A stretch of DNA of 25,681 nucleotides, from NCBI RefSeq assembly GCF_000281045.1, contig NW_008246092.1, forward strand, positions 30,389-56,069, in the 5' to 3' direction. Within the stretch, counting starts at the first letter, position 1. Every line of letters starts with the position of its first letter. A program made the translations under genes and the position numbers. The notes beneath the pieces were generated by a model. It was not told the origin of the DNA, did no database searches, and saw nothing but the letters and a program-made list of their open reading frames with translations. Origin of the DNA: Saprolegnia diclina VS20. Its lineage: Eukaryota; Oomycota; Saprolegniomycetes; Saprolegniales; Saprolegniaceae. Positions 13,658 to 23,737 of this stretch are shown in pieces.

Positions 13658-14714
13658 ATGCACGGTTCTACCACCGCTATCCTTGTGCTTCTCCACGGTA
13701 CGCGACCTTTCGTGGCAATGTCGAGGCTCATGCACCTCACGCACAGCTGCGGCGACGCTGGCGGTGCAAGACCCCTCCTTGTGCCGGCTCGTCGTGCTCT
13801 GCTTCACCATCACCAACACCCCGTGCAACCGCCAACTCGGTGCGTGTCCTCCATGTCTCTACGCGAACGCACAGGGCGGGTACCTTTGTTGGGCGAAAAC
13901 AGGCCCGTCGTGCCCGTTCACAGACAAGTCGGAGCTCACAATGTTCGACTGCTCTGGCAGCAACGCAACAACACCGACCCCAACAACAACGGCGGTACCA
14001 ACTACGACGCCGACACCAATAACAACGCTGACGGCAACAACAACAGCTACACCGACGACGGTACTACCAACGACGCCGACACAAACAGCCAACAACAGTA
14101 CGCAGAACGTACCGGGACCGAGCGAAGGCGCCAACTCGAACAGCGCTAGCTCGGCTACGGCGAGTCAAACGGTGCTCATGATTGCGATTGGCATGGGCGT
14201 CGCGTTCATGTTCGTGGCGGGTGTTTGCGCGCTCATGTATCGTCGCGAGAAGCGGCCGCGCCAGCCGTGTCCGCCTCCGACGCTCGTGGATCCGCCACCA
14301 CACAGTAAATTCAAGCGCGGCGGCAGCATCGCCATGCATGGGTCGCAGCTCCAGCGCATCAACTCGGGCTTCTCGTCGCAGAACGACGACCTTTCACTGC
14401 GCTCATTCCCAACGCCGTCGAGCTTTGGCGACGTGCAGAGCATTCTCGGCCAGGGCCGCGACGACGTGCAACCGCACAGTACGATCCACGAGTACATCGA
14501 CTCGGTGTCGTTTGCGCAGTTTTACCCGCTCCCGACAACAGCGACCGACGACATTTCAGACTCGGTGTCGCAGTACCGGTCGACCAACTCGCTCGTACTC
14601 GATGGGCGGTACAGCAATTTTTCCATCCTCTCGGACGACCCGCGCGACAACAACAACCCGAAGCTCCGCGTTTCGTGGGACGACGACGAGCGCGACAAGG
14701 AGGTTGAAATCTAA
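13658..14714 (+). CDS. Type I membrane protein with Cys-rich ectodomain and Thr-rich stalk
   Basis: Exons 13658-13697 and 13747-14714 (49-nt intron) give 335 aa. The join builds a clean signal peptide, MHGSTTAILVLLH|AAATLA, which neither reading frame shows alone. The ectodomain has the pattern CNRQLGACPPCLY...GYLCWAKTGPSCPF...DC. A Thr/Pro/Asn-rich stalk of about 70 residues follows and is probably O-glycosylated. Then come one membrane helix (VLMIAIGMGVAFMFVAGVCALMY), a basic stop-transfer (RREKRPR) and a cytoplasmic tail of about 150 residues. The tail contains YRSTNSLVLDGRYSNFSIL and many Ser and acidic residues. The architecture suggests a surface sensor or adhesion protein. No known family is recognised. 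It is the first of three related genes in tandem. Confidence 0.8.
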
Positions 14715-15669
14715 CGTCGCTTCCATCCTACTAAATTATATACACCAATATGTCAGTCATCCAGCGTCCGCTATCCCAGGCTAGGGCTAGGTGCAAAGTG
14801 TTATAACTCGCAACGACGGTCTACATTTCATGCGCCTCCATGCCATCGGTCATTGACATTCGCATTGTTTTCTGCGCTGCGAGCGATAATGATGCCAGAA
14901 AACCTATGTGCGTCTGCCAGCGCCACGGAAATATACTGTACAGCGCTTCAAGTTCTAACGAGGAAGGCCTCGTGGTGGAGGTACGCGACGCGCCTTGAAA
15001 CGAGGAAGAGGACGACCACAGATGCAAGTTCAAATAGGACACGTGACGCTGGCTTTAGTCCGAGGTGTCAGGTGTATATACAATCGTGCGCGGATCGTAC
15101 GCACGCACGTGTGTGGACAGTCGATGTGATTGCGCCTGTGCACGCTGTCCCGATCTCTGCTTGGTACCGAGATGGCAGCAACTGCACTCTCACTGGACTG
15201 ATGCAGCGATGGTAGCCAGTGGTATCGGAAGTACGTCTACTTGCCTCTCTGCATTGCAAATTGACGCGGCTGGGACCACGAACCTTCAAGACCGCCTCTG
15301 GCAAACGCTGTGTTGTCGTGTCGCCACGTGTTATAACACTTTGGGCCGATAACAGCCCAGTTACACATCGCCCATGCAGCAGCATCCAATATCATCTCCG
15401 AGCGTGTCGCCAAGTCTCTACGCGCCAGCGACCATCGAGAGAAGCCGAGATGGCAGCGATGGAAGGCAGCGTCGGCGGCGTCGACGAGCCAGCGCGGAGG
15501 AGGAGCGGTCGCACCGCTTGACCGGCTGCACCAGCTGCGGCCAAACGACTCAGAGTTCGTATCGAGTGGCCGGCGGCGATCGAACTTGACCAGATGTGTA
15601 ACACGTCGTCTTCGCCCACGCCTCACCCACGCGATTTCAAAATCAAACTGGTCCTCAGTAGCAGTCGTC
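14715..15669. other. Gap between membrane protein genes 1 and 2
   Basis: This 955-bp gap has no confident gene. A + strand open frame at 15065-15352 contains CVDSRCDCACARCPDLCLVP (about 15110-15170), Cys-rich in the style of the neighbouring ectodomains. It could be a lost or unrecognised 5' exon of membrane protein 2, but I could not join it in frame. Opposite-strand ORFs at 15237-15671 have no recognisable features. Confidence 0.35.
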
Positions 15670-16299
15670 ATGGGCGCGGAGACCTTTGTTGGTATTGGGC
15701 TCGTCGCGTTTGCTATCCTCTTCCTCGGCTACATGTCGTACAAGTGCAGCCGCGACAAGGCGCGCGTGCCGCCGCCTGCCAAGCCCGTTGAGACGCCCGC
15801 GTACAACCCGACCGCGCTCACCGAGATGGAAGATGGTCGTGGCAGCGGCTCGTTCGTCGTTCTGCAGGACAAGGTGCGCGACAGCAACATCCTGGACGCG
15901 TCGCCGCCGTCGCAAACGCACGTCTCGGCCAAGCTCGTCTCGTTCAGCGTCGGGTCGTCCGTCGGCGTCGGCAGCCACTTTGTCGTGACCAAGCCGACAG
16001 CGACCGACGACATTGCGATCCTCGAGGACGAAGAAGACGACGACATGATGGTCATCCAGCACGCGCCAATGAAGAAGCTCGGAGACGGCCTTGCCGAAGA
16101 CGACTTTGACATCGTCGACCAAGACTTGTACCGGTCGTCGACGTCGTTTAGCAAAGGCATGGACGGCCGGTACTCGCACTTCAGCATGGTCTCAGAGCTC
16201 TCAGCGTACGAGACGGCGAGCGAGTACGAGTCGCGCATGTCCCAGGCAAGTCGCGACAGCTACATGACCGACTACGACGGCAAGGAGGCCCGCATTTAG
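15670..16299 (+). CDS. Single-pass membrane protein 2 (signal-anchor, no ectodomain seen)
   Basis: A 209-aa frame. Residues 6-23 are one hydrophobic helix (FVGIGLVAFAILFLGYM) followed by SYKCSRDK, which should leave the long C-terminus in the cytoplasm. The tail is Ser/Asp-rich and includes an acidic EDEEDDDMM run. It also carries LYRSSTSFSKGMDGRYSHFSM, which matches the tail motif of the upstream gene (YRSxxS...DGRYSxFS). The protein ends in Tyr/Ser/Glu repeats (YETASEYESRMSQASRDSYM). The ATG at 15670 lies at the helix. The frame stays open for 28 codons upstream, so a longer version with spliced 5' exons coding for an ectodomain is possible. No family is recognised. Confidence 0.65.
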   Translation: MGAETFVGIGLVAFAILFLGYMSYKCSRDKARVPPPAKPVETPAYNPTALTEMEDGRGSGSFVVLQDKVRDSNILDASPPSQTHVSAKLVSFSVGSSVGVGSHFVVTKPTATDDIAILEDEEDDDMMVIQHAPMKKLGDGLAEDDFDIVDQDLYRSSTSFSKGMDGRYSHFSMVSELSAYETASEYESRMSQASRDSYMTDYDGKEARI

Positions 16300-16657
16300 A
16301 CGCGAGACGCAACTACTAGTTTGAATAGGATTTATTAATCAACGCGCCAGCGCGGCGCCGTGAGCTACATTATCACTGCGATGCCAGCCTCATGGAGCAT
16401 GGAGCAAACAGCAAGTCCGAGGATCCGGAGCACGAGCGACTGGACCCTGCATTGTGCATCCGTCCTATGTGATGAACCCACGCTTGACATGCAGCGCCGT
16501 TGACGACGACCCCTCTCCCCTGTCGCCATCTGCACGCGTTCTTTGCCCGCACGATTCTACGACCATGCTTCTGATAGGCAGACAGGCGCCACCAGCTGGT
16601 GCGGCCCCATCACGGTGCTTCGATCGGACCGAATCGCAGCCTTCTTTTCGCAGGGCG
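16300..16657. other. Gap between membrane protein genes 2 and 3
   Basis: These 358 bp should contain the 3' end of gene 2 and the promoter of gene 3. An open frame runs into gene 3 from 16454, but it lacks a signal peptide and is taken as untranslated. Nothing else is recognisable. Confidence 0.4.
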
Positions 16658-17694
16658 ATGACCCGCCGCCTCTTCCTTCTACTGCTGCTCCACACGGCGG
16701 CCGCGGGCCTCGCACCGCGCAACGCGACGCATCTCTGTACATCGATCGACCGCTGCATGACGCGCGAGGCTAAGACGTGCCACCGCGGCCGCGAGCGCTG
16801 CCCGTCGTGCCTCCTGCCGCAGCCTGAGACCGGTGCCTACGTGTGCATCGAGCCCACAGGCGCGCGCTGCCCCACCTACGACCCACCATCCATCGACTGC
16901 AGTTCGTAATTCTTATTTGTGTCGCGTGATCTCATGCCCAAGCCTGTAGCGGCGGTGCGGCGCCTTGATACCAACAGCACGACGAGCCGAATACCGCCGC
17001 TCGACCCGAAATCCTCCAATGTCCCGACACCCGTCCCTGGTGAGCGCTTGACACGACGTCACGTCTCGTAACATCGCGAGTAGGCCCGGCGCCGCCGTTG
17101 TCGACACTCCACATCGCCTACATTGTCGGTATCTCGGTGTGCACGATCAGCATCTTTGGCTTCCTCTTCCTCTATCGCCCCGCGAGCGCAAGCGCCAAGG
17201 ACGATGTCCCGATGCTGCACCCGCCCACGTCGTCGCGCAAGATGGAAACGTTCCTCGAGGCCTTTGGCACCAACGACATGCTCTTGCAGAGCAAGCGCGC
17301 ACTGCAGCCGATCGAGTCGGCGAGCCCGTTGGAAGCCCGCGCGTCGTACTTTGACTCGGTGCGGACCAGCGATCTGCTCACGTGCGCGCGGCAGATACCG
17401 CTTCTCGAAGACGATGTCGAGCCCAAGGCCAAGACTCGTGCGGCGTCTGGCGGCGGTCGTGGCACCGTTGTCATCGCCGAAGAGACCGAGCTGCCGAAAG
17501 AGGTGGGCGAAACGCCTTCGCTCATGCGGCCCACGGAACTGCGGAGGCAGCGGCCGATCGAGAGCCTCATGTCGCCATACTCTGTCGGCTCCTCTGAGAG
17601 CGCCGACTCGGTTCTCTCCGACAACAGCGAGGAGGTGTTCATGTCCCGGTCCTTCTCCTGGAATAAGTTTAGCCTCCATGGCACCCCTGCGTAA
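16658..17694 (+). CDS. Type I membrane protein with Cys-rich ectodomain (paralogue of gene at 13658)
   Basis: Proposed exons 16658-16901, 16950-17039 and 17084-17694 give 314 aa, with introns of 48 and 44 nt. The signal peptide MTRRLFLLLLLHTAAAG is clear. The ectodomain CHRGRERCPSCLL...GAYVCIEPTGARCP...DC follows the same C-x5-CPxCL-...-GxYxC-x5-GxxCP-...-DC spacing as the gene at 13658. A short Thr/Pro stalk (exon 2) leads to one membrane helix, AYIVGISVCTISIFGFLFLY. The cytoplasmic tail is Ser- and Glu-rich and ends with FMSRSFSWNKFSL. The first donor (GTTCGT) is weak. It was chosen because it is the only one near the C-terminal DC that keeps the frame. If it is wrong, exon 1 would end at the stop at 16909 as a secreted protein. 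Function unknown. Confidence 0.72.
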
Positions 17695-18385: not shown

Positions 18386-21032
18386 ATGTCGGAGCTTGAG
18401 GTGCGTCGGTCGCTCGCAAGGAGGTGGTGATGCTCATGAGGTCCTGTACTAGGAAGGAAGCGGCTTGGAGCGCCGGCCCAACTATGACCCAACGTACATG
18501 AAGGAAGGGTACCTGCAGAAGAAGGGCCAGCTCCTCAAGGGCTGGAAGAAGCGCTGGTTTGTCTGCGACGGGCGGTCGCTGAGCTACTACATCTCGAGCA
18601 AGGACAAGAAGCCGAACGCGGTCATCCCGCTCGAGTCGGCGTCTGTCCAAGACGGTGGCCTCAGCGAGACGTGGCACTCGCCGCGCATTTACCTCACGGA
18701 CGGCACCAGTGGCACCATGTACTGCCTCTCGGCCGAAGAGAAGGGCGTCGCCTCCGACTGGCTCAGCGTCCTCACAAAGGCCGTCGCGCGCATTCAAGAA
18801 GTCAAGCACAAGCACCGCCTCGAGCGCAACACGAGCGTCGGCGGCACGACCATCACGCCGTTCGACGAAGAAGAGGGGCGGCAAAAGCCGATGAGCCAGC
18901 AGCACGCACCACCGTCGCCGGCGCGCAAGCCCATGACGTCTGAAGCGTCGCGCAGCCGCATACAGCCCACGTCGCAAGCGAGCCACGGCCCCAAGGTGCC
19001 GACGCAGCCGACCAACATTCGTCTCGAAAACCAACTCTCGAGCGCGTCCGAGCTGCTCTCGTGCCTCCTCTTCAACAAGCCGTCGTCGCAGCACCCGCTT
19101 CACTTTCACTTTCATGGCGCCAACAACGGTGTCCGAGTGTCGACGGCGACGCACGGCGCGACGGGCAAGCAGTACGTCCGCGGCAGCGTCGCGATCAAGG
19201 CCTTGCCCTCTGTCGCCCTGCGCATCATCCTCGACCACCAAAAGCGCAACGAGTGGGATGTGCATTTCCCAGTGTCGACGCACGTCGCGACCTACGGCGG
19301 GTCCACCGACCTCATCCACCTCGCAGGCGGCACGCCGTACAACCTCTTTGCCGACCCGCTGGTGGCAACGACCAACACGGCGCTGCCTGCCCTTGGCTGC
19401 GCGGCCCTCTCGACGCTGCTTGCAGGCGACGTGGTGCACTCGGCCTGCGCCGCCGTTCTCGGTGGCCTCGCGTCGAGCATTGATTGGCGGTCGCTTGCTG
19501 TGCCGCGCGATCTGCTCGTCCTCCGTCACGTCTACGAGGCGTCGACGCCCCATGCGAAGCGCAACGACCGCCTCTCGTGCCAGAACGTGCTCGACGCAGT
19601 GGGCATGTCGGCTGTGCCGTCCGCCATGGTGATCCTCGAGATGTCGGTCGCCAACGAGCTCAAGCCCGTCCCGACCGGCGTCGTACGCGGCCACATTGGC
19701 ACGTCGGGATGGCTCGTCGAGCCCCTGGACGCCGAGTCGACGTTATTGACGTATGTGACGGACTTGAACCTCGGCGGGTGGGTGCCCGCGGCTACGATGA
19801 CCAATGTGCTGCACGGCCGCATGCAGATTCTCTCTGCGATTGCCGAGTTTGTGCACCAAGCCAAGATCCACGGCCCGAATTTGGGCTACATTGATGACGA
19901 CGACGACGACGACGACACGCGCGACGCGCCGACGGCGCCGGCCCACGAGACGCACGTGGCCGACGCTAGCTCGTCGGTCTTCCACCCGCGCGACTACTTC
20001 AAGCTCATGCTGCAGATCCCGACGGGTGGCGTCAAGCTGACGGATAAGGAGGTCGCGAAAAAGCAGAACGGCGTGCTCATGGAAGTCATCAAGTCGATGG
20101 GCACCAAGCTCCTTGAAGGCAAGTCGGCTGTGAGTCTCTCGCTGCCCGTGCGCATCTTTGAGCCGCGCTCGATGCTGGAGCGCCTTGTCGACCTCTACTT
20201 GTACGCGCCCAACTACCTCAACCGCGCCGCGGACGCGACCGAGATGCTCGAGCGCTTCAAGCTCACAATGACGTTTGCGATCGCGGGCTGGCACCACGGT
20301 GTTGGCTGCATGAAGCCGTTCAACCCGATTCTCGGCGAGACTTTTGAGGCCGAGTTTGCCGACGGCGCGCAGGTCTATGGCGAGCACACGAGCCACCACC
20401 CGCCGATCAGTTTTCTTCAGATCGTGGGCCAAAAGTACTCGATTTCGGCCCAGTCGATCATGAACGGCTCGATGCAAGGCAACTGCCTCGTCCAAGTGCA
20501 GCAAGGACCGGTGCGCATTTCGTTCAACGACGGCACGCTCATCGAGTGTTCGCTGCCGGGCGTGCGCCTCGGCGGCTTCCTCTGGGGCGACCGCGTCGTG
20601 GACTTTGTCGGCACGATCGTCTTTGAGGACAAGGTGAACGGCCTCCGCTGCGACTTGAAGCTCGACCCGGACTCGAAGAAGGGCATGTTTGCCTCCAACA
20701 AACTGCCGACGGACCGCTTCCGGGGCACGATCACGCGCTTTGGCGACGAGATCTGCGACGTGAGCGGGTCGTGGCTCGAAGACCTCCGTTTTGACGACAC
20801 TATGTACTGGTCACTGCACAAGGATGCGTGCGCGCCGGTGGTGTGGCTCCCGGATGACAAGGTGCTGCCGTCCGACAGCCGGAACCGCCAGGACCTCCGG
20901 TTCCTTGCGCAAGGCGACCTTGAGGAGGCGCAGGAGTGGAAATTGCAGCTCGAGGTACTCCAGCGCAGCGACCGCTCCAAGCGCAAGGACGGGCGCCGTC
21001 CCAACCACTGGACGATGGGCACGTCGCATTAG
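18386..21032 (+). CDS. Oxysterol-binding-related protein with PH, START-like and ORD domains
   Basis: Exons 18386-18400 and 18453-21032 (52-nt intron, GTGCGT donor) give 864 aa. The five-codon first exon supplies MSELE, needed because the long frame has no ATG near its start. A PH domain spans about 22-116 (YMKEGYLQKKGQLLKGWKKR). A START-like domain spans about 195-475, with RDLLVLRHVYE, VRGHIGTSGWLVEPLD and NLGGWVPAA. An eight-residue Asp run follows near residue 487. The OSBP-related domain covers about 530-830, with MKPFNPILGETFE and EHTSHHPP near residue 650, the form here of the EQVSHHPP signature. ORD proteins exchange sterols and PI4P at membrane contacts. START proteins move lipids too. 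A PH domain would target the chain to a phosphoinositide membrane. The N-terminal START annotation is less certain than PH and ORD. Confidence 0.92.
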
Positions 21033-21107: not shown

Positions 21108-23737
21108 ATGAGTAGCAGCAACTTCAACATGGGCAGCACAATGATATTGCAAAACGGCCGCCGGAGGTGCGATCTTGCGAAGCGTCGGCGGACGATGGCC
21201 AACCCGTGCAAGATCTCGCCCATGACCGACGACCCGACGGCCGAGGTTGGCGCGTTGCAGATCCCATGCGTCTCATAATGCGGTTGCCAGATCCGGCGAA
21301 AGAAGCGCACGGACGATGCGCTGCGCAAGAAGAAGGACGAGCGCAAGCATGCAGCGCGCCGACGCAAGCACGAGAAGCAGCAGGCGGCAGCGACCAAGAT
21401 CCAATCGCTCGTGCGAGGCGCCCAGACCCGCGTGTACATCTCGTCGAGCATTGCGCCCGCGCCGCCCGAGCCGTCTGTCGAAGACAAGCCAGGTTCTTCG
21501 TCCTCGCTACATCTGTGTGCAGCTGACGCAGAATGCATAGCGACACCCGCCGTCGACGTGCCTCGGCTCGTATTGAGGTAGTTGCATGTAGCACCGAGAC
21601 GTATGGTCGGCGACGCCAACTACATAGCGCACTTTGCCACAGCGCAGACGACCTCCACCGGAGTCAGCCGCGCAGTGCGAGGAAGCTGCCAACGTCTGCA
21701 AGTGCCAAGGACCTCTCTTTCGATCGAACACTGGCCAGCAGTCGAGACAAGGCGCCGAGTGCAAGCCGGCCTCCGTCCGCGCGGGCGATAACTCCTAAAA
21801 GCAGCAGCCGCCCTTCGAGTGCGACCAATCTATTAAGCCGACCACCCAGCGCGCTCACTCTCGCCAGTGGCAGCCGTCCACCAAGTGCACGCGACGCAAC
21901 ACCGCCCGCGTACGCATTTGAGACGAGTTTGTCCTTTGATGGTCGTCAGTAGACAGAAGGAGGCGACCGACGGGGACGCGAGGTATGGCGAAGCACGCAC
22001 ATGGCAGCGACGGGACTTTGTCGTTTCGTAGTTCACCCCCGAGCTCTGCTTTGGCCACACCACGCAGCGACGCTGTGAGCCCCAAGCTTGGTACGGCTGC
22101 ACCTTGGATCGTATTGAGCCATCGGGTAGAGTCGGCGGCCACGCGAGTACAAGCCTACTTTCGAGGCTACTCGGTGCGGAAAAACCAAGTCGGAATTGCC
22201 CCGCCTTCTGACGACGACGACGACGACGATGAAGCGCCGCCTGCAGAATTCATTCCCGACACGGAGCGACCGAGCGATGCCAAGGCAGCAGAAGAGGACC
22301 CGCCGACTCCATGGCCGAGTCCGTTGACCCTTGAGTCGTCTCTCGGTGCGACGCAGCACGTCTCGATCGCACAGATGTCAGCGAGTTTTTGTGGTAGACG
22401 TCTCGCAGGACACGACAGAGTCGGTGCTCGCGGCGGGTAGCGTCCGCGTCCTCGTGCTGACGTGGAATCTTCAGGCGCACAAGCCTCCACCGGACCTGTC
22501 GCCACTTTTGCGCCCCGGGACGTGTCACATATACGCGATCGGCACGGAAGAGTGTGTTCAGACGTACGTCTTCTAAGGCGCGTTGCCGGTGGCTCATGTT
22601 TTGACGTAGAATCGCCAAGTCGGTGCTCTTCCAGTCCAAAAAGGAGTGGGAAGACAAAATCCGCGCGACGCTTGGGCCAACAGATTACATCAAATTGCGC
22701 AGCCACGCGCTCACGGCGATGCACAACATGGTATTTGTACACAAAAGTGTCCTTTCGCTGGTCACGAGCCTCGAGTCGGACGCGATCGCGACCGGGATCG
22801 GGAACCAGCTCGGCAACAAAGGTACGCTACTGGTCGATGCTATCGTGATAAATGGGATTCTGTAGGCGGCGTCGGCATCGGCTTTCAACTCGGCCTCACG
22901 CGCTTCGCCTTCATCAACGCGCACTTTGAGGCGCACCAGTCACAACACGCTCTGAAGCGGCGCAACGCCAACTTTGCAAAAATCAACGCCGAGCTCCGGC
23001 TGCTCCCTGTTGCGTACTATGAGACATCCCGCGTTGATCGTCACCAACGACAATCATGTTGATAGAAAGTGCGACGACCGAGTCGGACCGATCTCGGATG
23101 TCTTTGACCGCGTCTTTTGGAGCGGCGACCTCAACTACCGCATCGACGGGACACGGCGCATGATCGAAACCCTCCTTGCGCGTGACATGCACAACGTGAT
23201 CACTTTGAATTCTCGTTATGTTCCGAGTTCTAACACAAGGGCTAGGTGTTACTCGCGAACGACCAGCTCACAAAGGAGCGCGACGCCCAGCGCGTGTTTC
23301 AGGTTTGTAGCGGTTGAGGAACATGTGGGTGGGTGCCCATAGGAGTGATCTAGCGCTTCCACGAAGGCCCGCTGCATTTTCGCCCGACGTACAAGTTTGA
23401 CAAGGGTGCGATATTTCTGATTTGTGGGCGATACCAAGAAGGAAGACGTAGGCTCCGACGCGTACGATACGTCGGCCAAGCAACGAATACCGTCGTGGAC
23501 CGATCGCATACTTTACGCCACGCTCCAGCCGGTACCGAATGTGTTTATTCAGGGTTGAAAAAAATGTGCTAGAATACGATCCAACTACGGTCGTATGAGA
23601 GCCACACGGAGATTCGAACGTCCGACCACCGCCCCGTCTCGGCTGTCTTTGACGTCGCGTTCGCTGGCCACGAACCGCAGTTGCATGCAGCGGCCAAATC
23701 CAACCAAACCAAGAGCGAAGTGTGCAGTGTGCAGTAG
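21108..23737 (+). CDS. IQ-motif inositol polyphosphate 5-phosphatase
   Basis: Twelve exons: 21108-21245, 21291-21577, 21628-21941, 21983-22345, 22398-22563, 22610-22821, 22866-23013, 23066-23195, 23246-23302, 23354-23405, 23452-23531 and 23573-23737. They give 703 aa. Residues 47-82 are Lys/Arg-rich. IQ motifs are at about 83-99 (TKIQSLVRGAQTRVY) and 298-314 (TRVQAYFRGYSVRKN), separated by Ser/Pro repeats of SRPPSA type. The 5-phosphatase domain runs from about 381 (VLVLTWNLQAHKPP) through TEECVQTI, NKGGVGIGF, FWSGDLNYRID (near 560), PSWTDRIL (near 635) and SDHRPVSAVFD (near 666). All catalytic motifs are intact. It should remove the 5-phosphate from phosphoinositides, with calmodulin-like proteins as likely IQ partners. 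Exons 5-12 are strongly supported. Exons 1-4 rest on phase alone, and one intron there (21942-21982) has a weak GTCGTC donor and a GAG acceptor. Confidence 0.88.

What the first reader, a model, noticed from the sequence alone, without database searches (positions are those of the whole stretch)
13658..17694. Tandem family of oomycete receptor-like membrane proteins with a shared Cys-rich ectodomain and a shared Tyr/Ser tail motif
Three consecutive + strand genes code for single-pass proteins. Genes 1 and 3 share the ectodomain spacing C-x5-CPxCL-x(6-7)-GxYxC-x5-GxxCP-x(7-9)-DC, although the rest has diverged. Genes 1 and 2 share the tail motif YRSxxS-x(4)-DGRYSxFS. Gene 2 seems to have lost, or hides, its ectodomain. 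A conserved cytoplasmic Tyr/Ser motif next to a fast-evolving Cys-rich outside domain is what one expects of a surface sensing or adhesion family. I know of no described family with this layout.
Basis: partly seen in the sequence, partly recalled or inferred. Interest (0 to 1): 0.75.

Follow-up and report, generated by a model that had tools for sequence, protein, structure and literature searches.

The report
Water-mould surface protein gene trio
Three neighbouring genes of a water mould encode single-pass membrane proteins: two carry a related outside domain with eight cysteines, and the third is mostly an inside tail that shares a short motif with the first; they look like a small, undescribed family of cell-surface sensors or wall anchors.

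Summary
The window is Saprolegnia diclina sequence. The three genes are real: my models equal proteins P0001, P0007 and P0005 letter for letter. Genes 1 and 3 share a homologous 8-Cys ectodomain, and so do three more loci in the same genome. Genes 1 and 2 share a tail motif (hhalign E 1.9e-5) and a C-terminus KExxI.

Corrections: no hidden gene 2 ectodomain was found. Its 209-212 aa tail-only form is conserved in Achlya (86%) and Thraustotheca (69%), the best conserved of the trio. Gene 1's ectodomain is not fast-evolving: 100/82/56% identical to three orthologues, against 94/64/51% for the tail and 58/34/19% for the stalk.

No Pfam or NCBIfam match reached its cut-off, no PDB sequence matched, and no fold match was significant. 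Homologues appeared only in Saprolegniales. The layout (Cys-rich head, Ser/Thr stalk, one TM, non-catalytic tail) resembles fungal Wsc wall sensors, but no WSC domain was found. Best guess: wall/surface sensors, with gene 2 a tail-only partner of gene 1. The mechanism is inferred.

The parts
13658..14714 (+). Gene 1 (335 aa; exons 13658-13697 and 13747-14714): type I membrane protein
   Evidence: Spliced translation identical to P0001, S. diclina VS20 'hypothetical protein, variant'
13698..13746 (+). Gene 1 intron, 49 nt, phase 1, inside the signal peptide (signal peptide read by eye)
   Evidence: GT...AG, splice reproduces P0001
13782..13952 (+). Gene 1 8-Cys ectodomain (aa 26-82)
   Evidence: scan; HMM and shuffles; AlphaFold model mean pLDDT 80.7
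13953..14168 (+). Gene 1 Ser/Thr/Pro-rich stalk (aa 83-154, 47% S/T)
   Evidence: least conserved part of the mature protein
14169..14237 (+). Gene 1 transmembrane helix (aa 155-177)
   Evidence: Mean hydropathy 2.51 over 19 residues from aa 156
14574..14636 (+). Gene 1 tail motif YRSTNSLVLDGRYSNFSILSD
   Evidence: Shared with gene 2: hhalign E 1.9e-5, 22 columns
14697..14711 (+). Gene 1 C-terminus KEVEI, same KExxI ending as gene 2
   Evidence: 7 of 7 gene 1/2 proteins
15670..16299 (+). Gene 2 (209 aa, one exon): N-terminal TM anchor plus cytoplasmic tail, no ectodomain
   Evidence: P0007 (listed without source, as the window encodes it); orthologues of 212 and 210 aa with the same layout
15685..15735 (+). 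Gene 2 transmembrane helix, about aa 6-22, followed by K/R
   Evidence: Mean hydropathy 2.06 over the 19-mer from aa 1
15847..15864 (+). Gene 2 GSFVVL, LIR-like (Atg8-binding consensus recalled)
   Evidence: Conserved in 3 of 3 orthologues; two or more such motifs arise in 3% of shuffles
16099..16116 (+). Gene 2 DDFDIV, LIR-like in an acidic context
   Evidence: Conserved in 3 of 3 orthologues
16129..16197 (+). Gene 2 tail motif YRSSTSFSKGMDGRYSHFSMVSE
16282..16296 (+). Gene 2 C-terminus KEARI
16658..17694 (+). Gene 3 (314 aa; exons 16658-16901, 16950-17039, 17084-17694): type I membrane protein
   Evidence: Spliced translation identical to P0005, SDRG_08235
16736..16900 (+). Gene 3 8-Cys ectodomain (aa 27-81)
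   Evidence: AlphaFold model mean pLDDT 85.0
16902..16949 (+). Gene 3 intron 1, phase 1, just after the last ectodomain Cys
   Evidence: same place and phase as in my model of paralogue C30
17040..17083 (+). Gene 3 intron 2
17107..17175 (+). Gene 3 transmembrane helix (aa 120-142)
   Evidence: Mean hydropathy 2.26; 20/23 identical in Achlya
17176..17691 (+). Gene 3 cytoplasmic tail with conserved block ASYFDSVRTSDLLTCARQIPLLED; no detectable kinship to the tails of genes 1 and 2

Best explanation
The trio is a lineage-specific set of Saprolegniales cell-surface proteins. Genes 1 and 3 are type I proteins with a compact, four-disulfide head (disulfides inferred from 8 conserved Cys), a probably O-glycosylated stalk (long in gene 1, short in gene 3), one transmembrane helix and a non-catalytic tail. 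They most likely work like fungal Wsc/Mid2-type wall sensors: the head contacts the wall or a surface ligand, the stalk transmits distance or force, and clustering exposes or phosphorylates the tail, which docks a cytosolic partner. Gene 2 is a tail-only membrane protein. It carries the gene 1 docking motif (YRS[ST]xS...RY[ST]xFS[IM]) and C-terminus, and so most likely joins or competes for the same partner. Shown: gene structure, homology, conservation, predicted fold. Inferred: signal peptides and topology, disulfides, glycosylation, partner, function.
For: Exact gene models. Ectodomain homology of genes 1 and 3: hhalign probability 93.7%, E 1.9e-7, running on through stalk and TM; Cys-kept shuffle test; E 3.8e-6 in the own-genome search. 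Tail motif of genes 1 and 2: hhalign probability 77.6%, E 1.9e-5. In gene 1, ectodomain and tail conserved, stalk divergent, as expected of a head on a spacer. Gene 2 conserved tail-only in three genera. Head models of genes 1 and 3 with the same first five elements. The Wsc layout of CRD, Ser/Thr-rich region, TM and tail is from PMC9024836 (abstract and introduction read); Mid2 is recalled.
Against: No WSC domain found, no expression, localisation or partner data, and no downstream component tested. Signal peptides were read by eye. Gene 3's stalk is short. The gene 1-2 tail link rests on about 22 columns and the C-terminus: a gene 1 tail HMM gives gene 2 only 10.7 bits (best of 300 shuffles 8.8), and the gene 2 tail HMM gives gene 1 9.5 bits and its Achlya orthologue only 2.2. 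The YxxPhi match in the motif is expected by chance (70% and 86% of shuffles). The two structure models share most of one small alignment, so they are not independent, and gene 1's five models range from 80.7 to 54.5 in mean pLDDT.
Confidence: 0.38

Rival explanations
1. Adhesins or wall-membrane tethers: the Cys-rich head binds the wall or a substrate, and the tail only anchors or sorts the protein, without signalling.
For: Same anatomy; a Ser/Thr stalk suits adhesins; three further paralogues share the head while their tails show no kinship to those of genes 1, 2 or 3.
Against: Tails are conserved (gene 1 tail 86/170 and gene 2 72% overall in Thraustotheca), and a tail-only protein is kept in three genera, which a pure anchor does not explain.
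Confidence: 0.25
2. Kinase-less co-receptors of the large oomycete family of TKL receptor-like kinases.
For: The paralogue at C68 hits several ORFs that read, by eye, as TKL receptor kinases, mostly over stalk and TM; oomycete TKLs include many transmembrane receptor-like forms (PMC3019232, passages seen).
Against: The 8-Cys pattern is in none of the 6 fetched loci with a kinase HRD motif, each about 3 kb; the shared region is largely low-complexity stalk and TM.
Confidence: 0.12
3. Gene 2 is a membrane-anchored autophagy receptor that binds Atg8 through GSFVVL and DDFDIV, and its tail motif is unrelated in function to gene 1's.
For: Two matches to the recalled xLIR consensus, identical in 3 of 3 orthologues; two or more such matches in 596 of 20,000 shuffles; hardly any luminal part.
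Against: Much of the tail is conserved, so conservation is not specific to these motifs; the consensus is loose; it does not explain the gene 1 link.
Confidence: 0.08
4. The head is an inhibitor-like knot of the potato type II inhibitor sort, acting on outside proteases.
For: Four of the ten best Foldseek hits of the gene 1 model are 50-53 residue plant inhibitors (that IRD12 is one is recalled).
Against: E-values 0.42 to 3.6, TM-scores at most 0.38; none is listed for the gene 3 model.
Confidence: 0.04
5. Genes 1 and 2 resemble one another only by chance or convergence in a short linear motif.
For: Short, low-scoring similarity; the gene 2 tail HMM gives Achlya gene 1 only 2.2 bits.
Against: Adjacent genes, shared C-terminus, 0 of 300 shuffles reach the score in either direction, hhalign E 1.9e-5.
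Confidence: 0.13

Closest known systems
Fungal Wsc-type cell wall integrity sensors (WSC domain PF01822; Wsc1 of yeast)
   Same: 8-Cys head, Ser/Thr-rich stalk, one TM, cytoplasmic tail (layout and eight cysteines from PMC9024836, introduction read)
   Different: No PF01822 match listed at E up to 10 in 10 proteins; a tail-only neighbour gene shares the gene 1 tail motif
Oomycete transmembrane TKL receptor-like kinases
   Same: Single-pass layout with an outside part and a stalk; stalk/TM similarity to one paralogue
   Different: No kinase domain; 8-Cys pattern absent from the 6 fetched loci with a kinase HRD motif
TNFR-Cys domain proteins (name that UniRef gives P0005)
   Same: Small Cys-rich extracellular domain with a CxxC (recalled)
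   Different: No TNFR Pfam model among the hits at E up to 10; the recalled PROSITE PS00652 pattern matches 0 of 9 proteins
Potato type II proteinase inhibitors
   Same: 8-Cys domain of similar size (Cys count recalled); weak fold resemblance of the gene 1 model
   Different: Not significant, and not listed for the gene 3 model

Membership tests
WSC-type wall sensors | WSC domain (PF01822) | tested here: not met
   Not listed for any of 10 proteins at E up to 10; no PDB sequence match of the ectodomain profile at E up to 10
WSC-type wall sensors | Eight cysteines in the head | tested here: met
   9 of 9 ectodomains compared
WSC-type wall sensors | Ser/Thr-rich stalk | tested here: met
   Gene 1: 47% S/T over 72 residues; gene 3's stalk is short and was not measured
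WSC-type wall sensors | One TM and a cytoplasmic tail without enzyme domain | tested here: met
   Hydropathy; no family above its cut-off; topology itself is inferred
WSC-type wall sensors | Signals to the PKC/MAPK wall integrity pathway | not testable with these tools
   Needs experiment
TKL receptor-like kinases | Kinase domain | tested here: not met
   No kinase Pfam match listed
TNFR family | TNFR-Cys repeat | tested here: not met
   No TNFR Pfam model listed; recalled PS00652 pattern 0 of 9
Potato type II inhibitors | Fold and reactive loop | tested here: inconclusive
   Foldseek E 0.42 at best for gene 1, none listed for gene 3

The most novel reading that the evidence does not exclude
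An oomycete-specific surface-sensing module, unrelated to Wsc, in which an 8-Cys receptor and a neighbouring tail-only membrane protein share one docking motif, so that the tail-only protein sets the receptor's access to its cytosolic partner; the head would be a disulfide fold not yet described, used with several different tails in one genome.
Probability: 0.2. Interest if true: 0.65.

Novelty: new variant of a known kind. Interest (0 to 1): 0.42.

Why it matters
I recall no described upstream wall or surface sensor of the Wsc kind in oomycetes; one paper search on WSC, wall integrity and oomycetes showed none by title or abstract among the 15 of 250 papers listed. These three conserved genes are concrete candidates, and the tail-only gene 2 gives a direct handle on the signalling side.

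Tried and rejected
Hidden ectodomain of gene 2: the 8-Cys scan of the six frames of the window finds only genes 1 and 3, strict and loose (unspliced frames only). Upstream ATGs between genes 1 and 2 give no signal peptide that convinces me. Two of two orthologues start at the same short N-terminus.

TKL kinase kinship: looked promising, but the matches lie largely in stalk and TM, and the Cys pattern is absent from the six loci with a kinase HRD motif.

Endocytic YxxPhi reading of the motif: not above chance. Alignments set aside: A4 misplaced gene 2's TM, A7 read gene 1 in the wrong frame, A8 cut gene 1's head short; A5 and A9 replaced them. Locus-tag paper search: 0 papers. Other searches gave nothing on this family in the listings shown.
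Full report
What it is. The window lies in a 54.15 Mb genome of 169 contigs. Gene 1 and gene 3 proteins are identical to Saprolegnia diclina VS20 records, so this is S. diclina, Saprolegniales. The contig lengths differ (635,788 here, 683,613 for the records), so it may be another assembly or strain. Gene 1 has one 49 nt intron, gene 2 none, gene 3 two of 48 and 44 nt. The three translations equal P0001, P0007 and P0005. P0007 is listed without source or name, because the window encodes it.

Orthologues. Three protein searches, all that were allowed, were run against 5.77 billion sequences. The gene 1 search scored only the 7,991 candidates sharing most words and found S. parasitica SPRG_01857 (86%), Achlya hypogyna ACHHYP_07089 (60%) and Thraustotheca clavata THRCLA_02268 (42%). 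Gene 3 found only ACHHYP_07091 (56%) besides itself. The tail profile A5 found gene 2 in Achlya (ACHHYP_07090, 86%) and Thraustotheca (THRCLA_02267, 69%), besides gene 2 itself and the four gene 1 proteins. No S. parasitica gene 2 or gene 3 and no Thraustotheca gene 3 was listed; P0005 and P0007 each stand for two member sequences at 90% identity, and I could not see the second. Consecutive locus tags in Achlya, on contigs listed with the same length, fit a conserved trio; I did not see that DNA. Nothing outside Saprolegniales appeared, but the searches need shared exact words, so distant relatives may be missed. The UniRef name 'Secreted protein' of some Achlya and Thraustotheca entries is presumably from prediction; the secretome paper of those species excluded proteins with a TM after the signal peptide (PMC4316629, passages seen).

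Ectodomain. Single-protein searches of the own genome found gene 3 (E 3.8e-6 with gene 1) and further members at C30:409373 (E 1.8e-6 with gene 1), C68:244439 (E 1.4e-4 with the C30 protein) and C25:362049 (E 0.37 with the C68 protein; E 0.048 back to C68). The five genomic ectodomains share eight Cys, an Arg two residues after the third Cys and a Pro after the fourth; the spacing over nine sequences is C-x(4,5)-C-x7-C-x-R-x4-C-P-x-C-x(9-11)-C-x(7-9)-C-x(5-12)-C. An HMM of four gene 1 orthologues scores C30 at 42.1, gene 3 at 28.9, C68 at 18.2, C25 at 15.4 and Achlya gene 3 at 13.5 bits. Shuffles that keep the Cys in place reach those scores in 0, 0, 0, 2 and 3 of 500. So homology is solid for gene 3 and C30, good for C68, and weaker for C25. 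The regular expression was written after seeing these members, so its recurrence in them is descriptive. Counts of paralogues are lower bounds, as the tool says.

Introns. Gene 1 and C30 have a phase 1 intron inside the signal peptide; gene 3 and C30 have a phase 1 intron just after the last ectodomain Cys. The C30 splice is my own choice: one of eight listed for its first intron, one of two for its second, both with the same donor. If right, the head sits in a phase 1-1 exon, the classical arrangement of a shuffled module (established knowledge), and C30 keeps both introns while genes 1 and 3 keep one each. The start of the C68 gene was not settled.

Rates. In gene 1 the head is 57/57, 47/57 and 32/57 identical to the S. 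parasitica, Achlya and Thraustotheca orthologues; the stalk 42/72, 27/79 and 15/79; the TM 21/23, 18/23 and 8/23; the tail 151/160, 104/162 and 86/170. In gene 3 against Achlya: head 28/55, stalk 16/42, TM 20/23, tail 104/174. So the head is not the fast part of gene 1; in gene 3 it is a little below the tail.

Gene 2 and tails. Gene 2 starts with a TM and has a 183-residue tail with long blocks invariant in three genera. Profile comparison of genes 1 and 2 gives one match of 22 columns (probability 77.6%, E 1.9e-5). The motif is YRS[ST]xS-x(3 or 5)-[DE]-x-RY[ST]xFS[IM][LVM]S[DE] in 7 of 7 proteins, and 7 of 7 end in KE[VA][ER]I. The ending has the shape of a class II PDZ ligand (recalled; lead only). 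Tails of gene 3, C30, C68 and C25 show no kinship to these or, for the last three, to gene 3's; they were not compared with one another. Gene 3 against the gene 2 HMM scores 1.3 bits with 13 of 300 shuffles as good, and hhalign gives probability 1%.

Families. Pfam at E up to 10 gave no hit reaching its cut-off in any of 10 proteins; NCBIfam at E up to 1 gave one hit, far below cut-off, in 6 proteins; the ectodomain profile found 0 PDB sequences.

Mechanism. By anatomy the closest functional analogue is the fungal wall sensor: head, Ser/Thr stalk, TM, tail. The WSC domain was sought and not found, so this is 'works like', not 'is a'. The tail-only neighbour is the unusual point. Since it is better conserved than gene 1 and shares the motif, I take it as a second binder of one cytosolic partner. 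None of the signalling steps is shown.

Noticed in passing
window 18453-21032 (+): One open frame carries PH, START and Oxysterol_BP domains (Pfam 51, 41 and 160 bits), to my knowledge an unusual combination for a lipid-transfer protein.
   Followed up: no
window about 21940-23342 (+): IQ motif (20.2 bits, just under its cut-off) upstream of an Exo_endo_phos2 domain in two frames (33.2 bits, and 25.5, under the cut-off), probably an intron-split inositol 5-phosphatase-like gene.
   Followed up: partly
window 15847-15864 and 16099-16116 (+): Two LIR-like motifs in gene 2, identical in three genera; chance 3% by shuffling.
   Followed up: partly
L026/L036 (G000:C25:362049): Fifth carrier of the 8-Cys head, on the same contig as the window, with a very long Thr/Pro stalk and an Asn/Gln/Tyr-rich tail.
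   Followed up: partly
P0002, P0003 N-termini: Database models of S. parasitica and Achlya gene 1 start at an upstream ATG, probably too early by comparison with the S. diclina variant.
   Followed up: no
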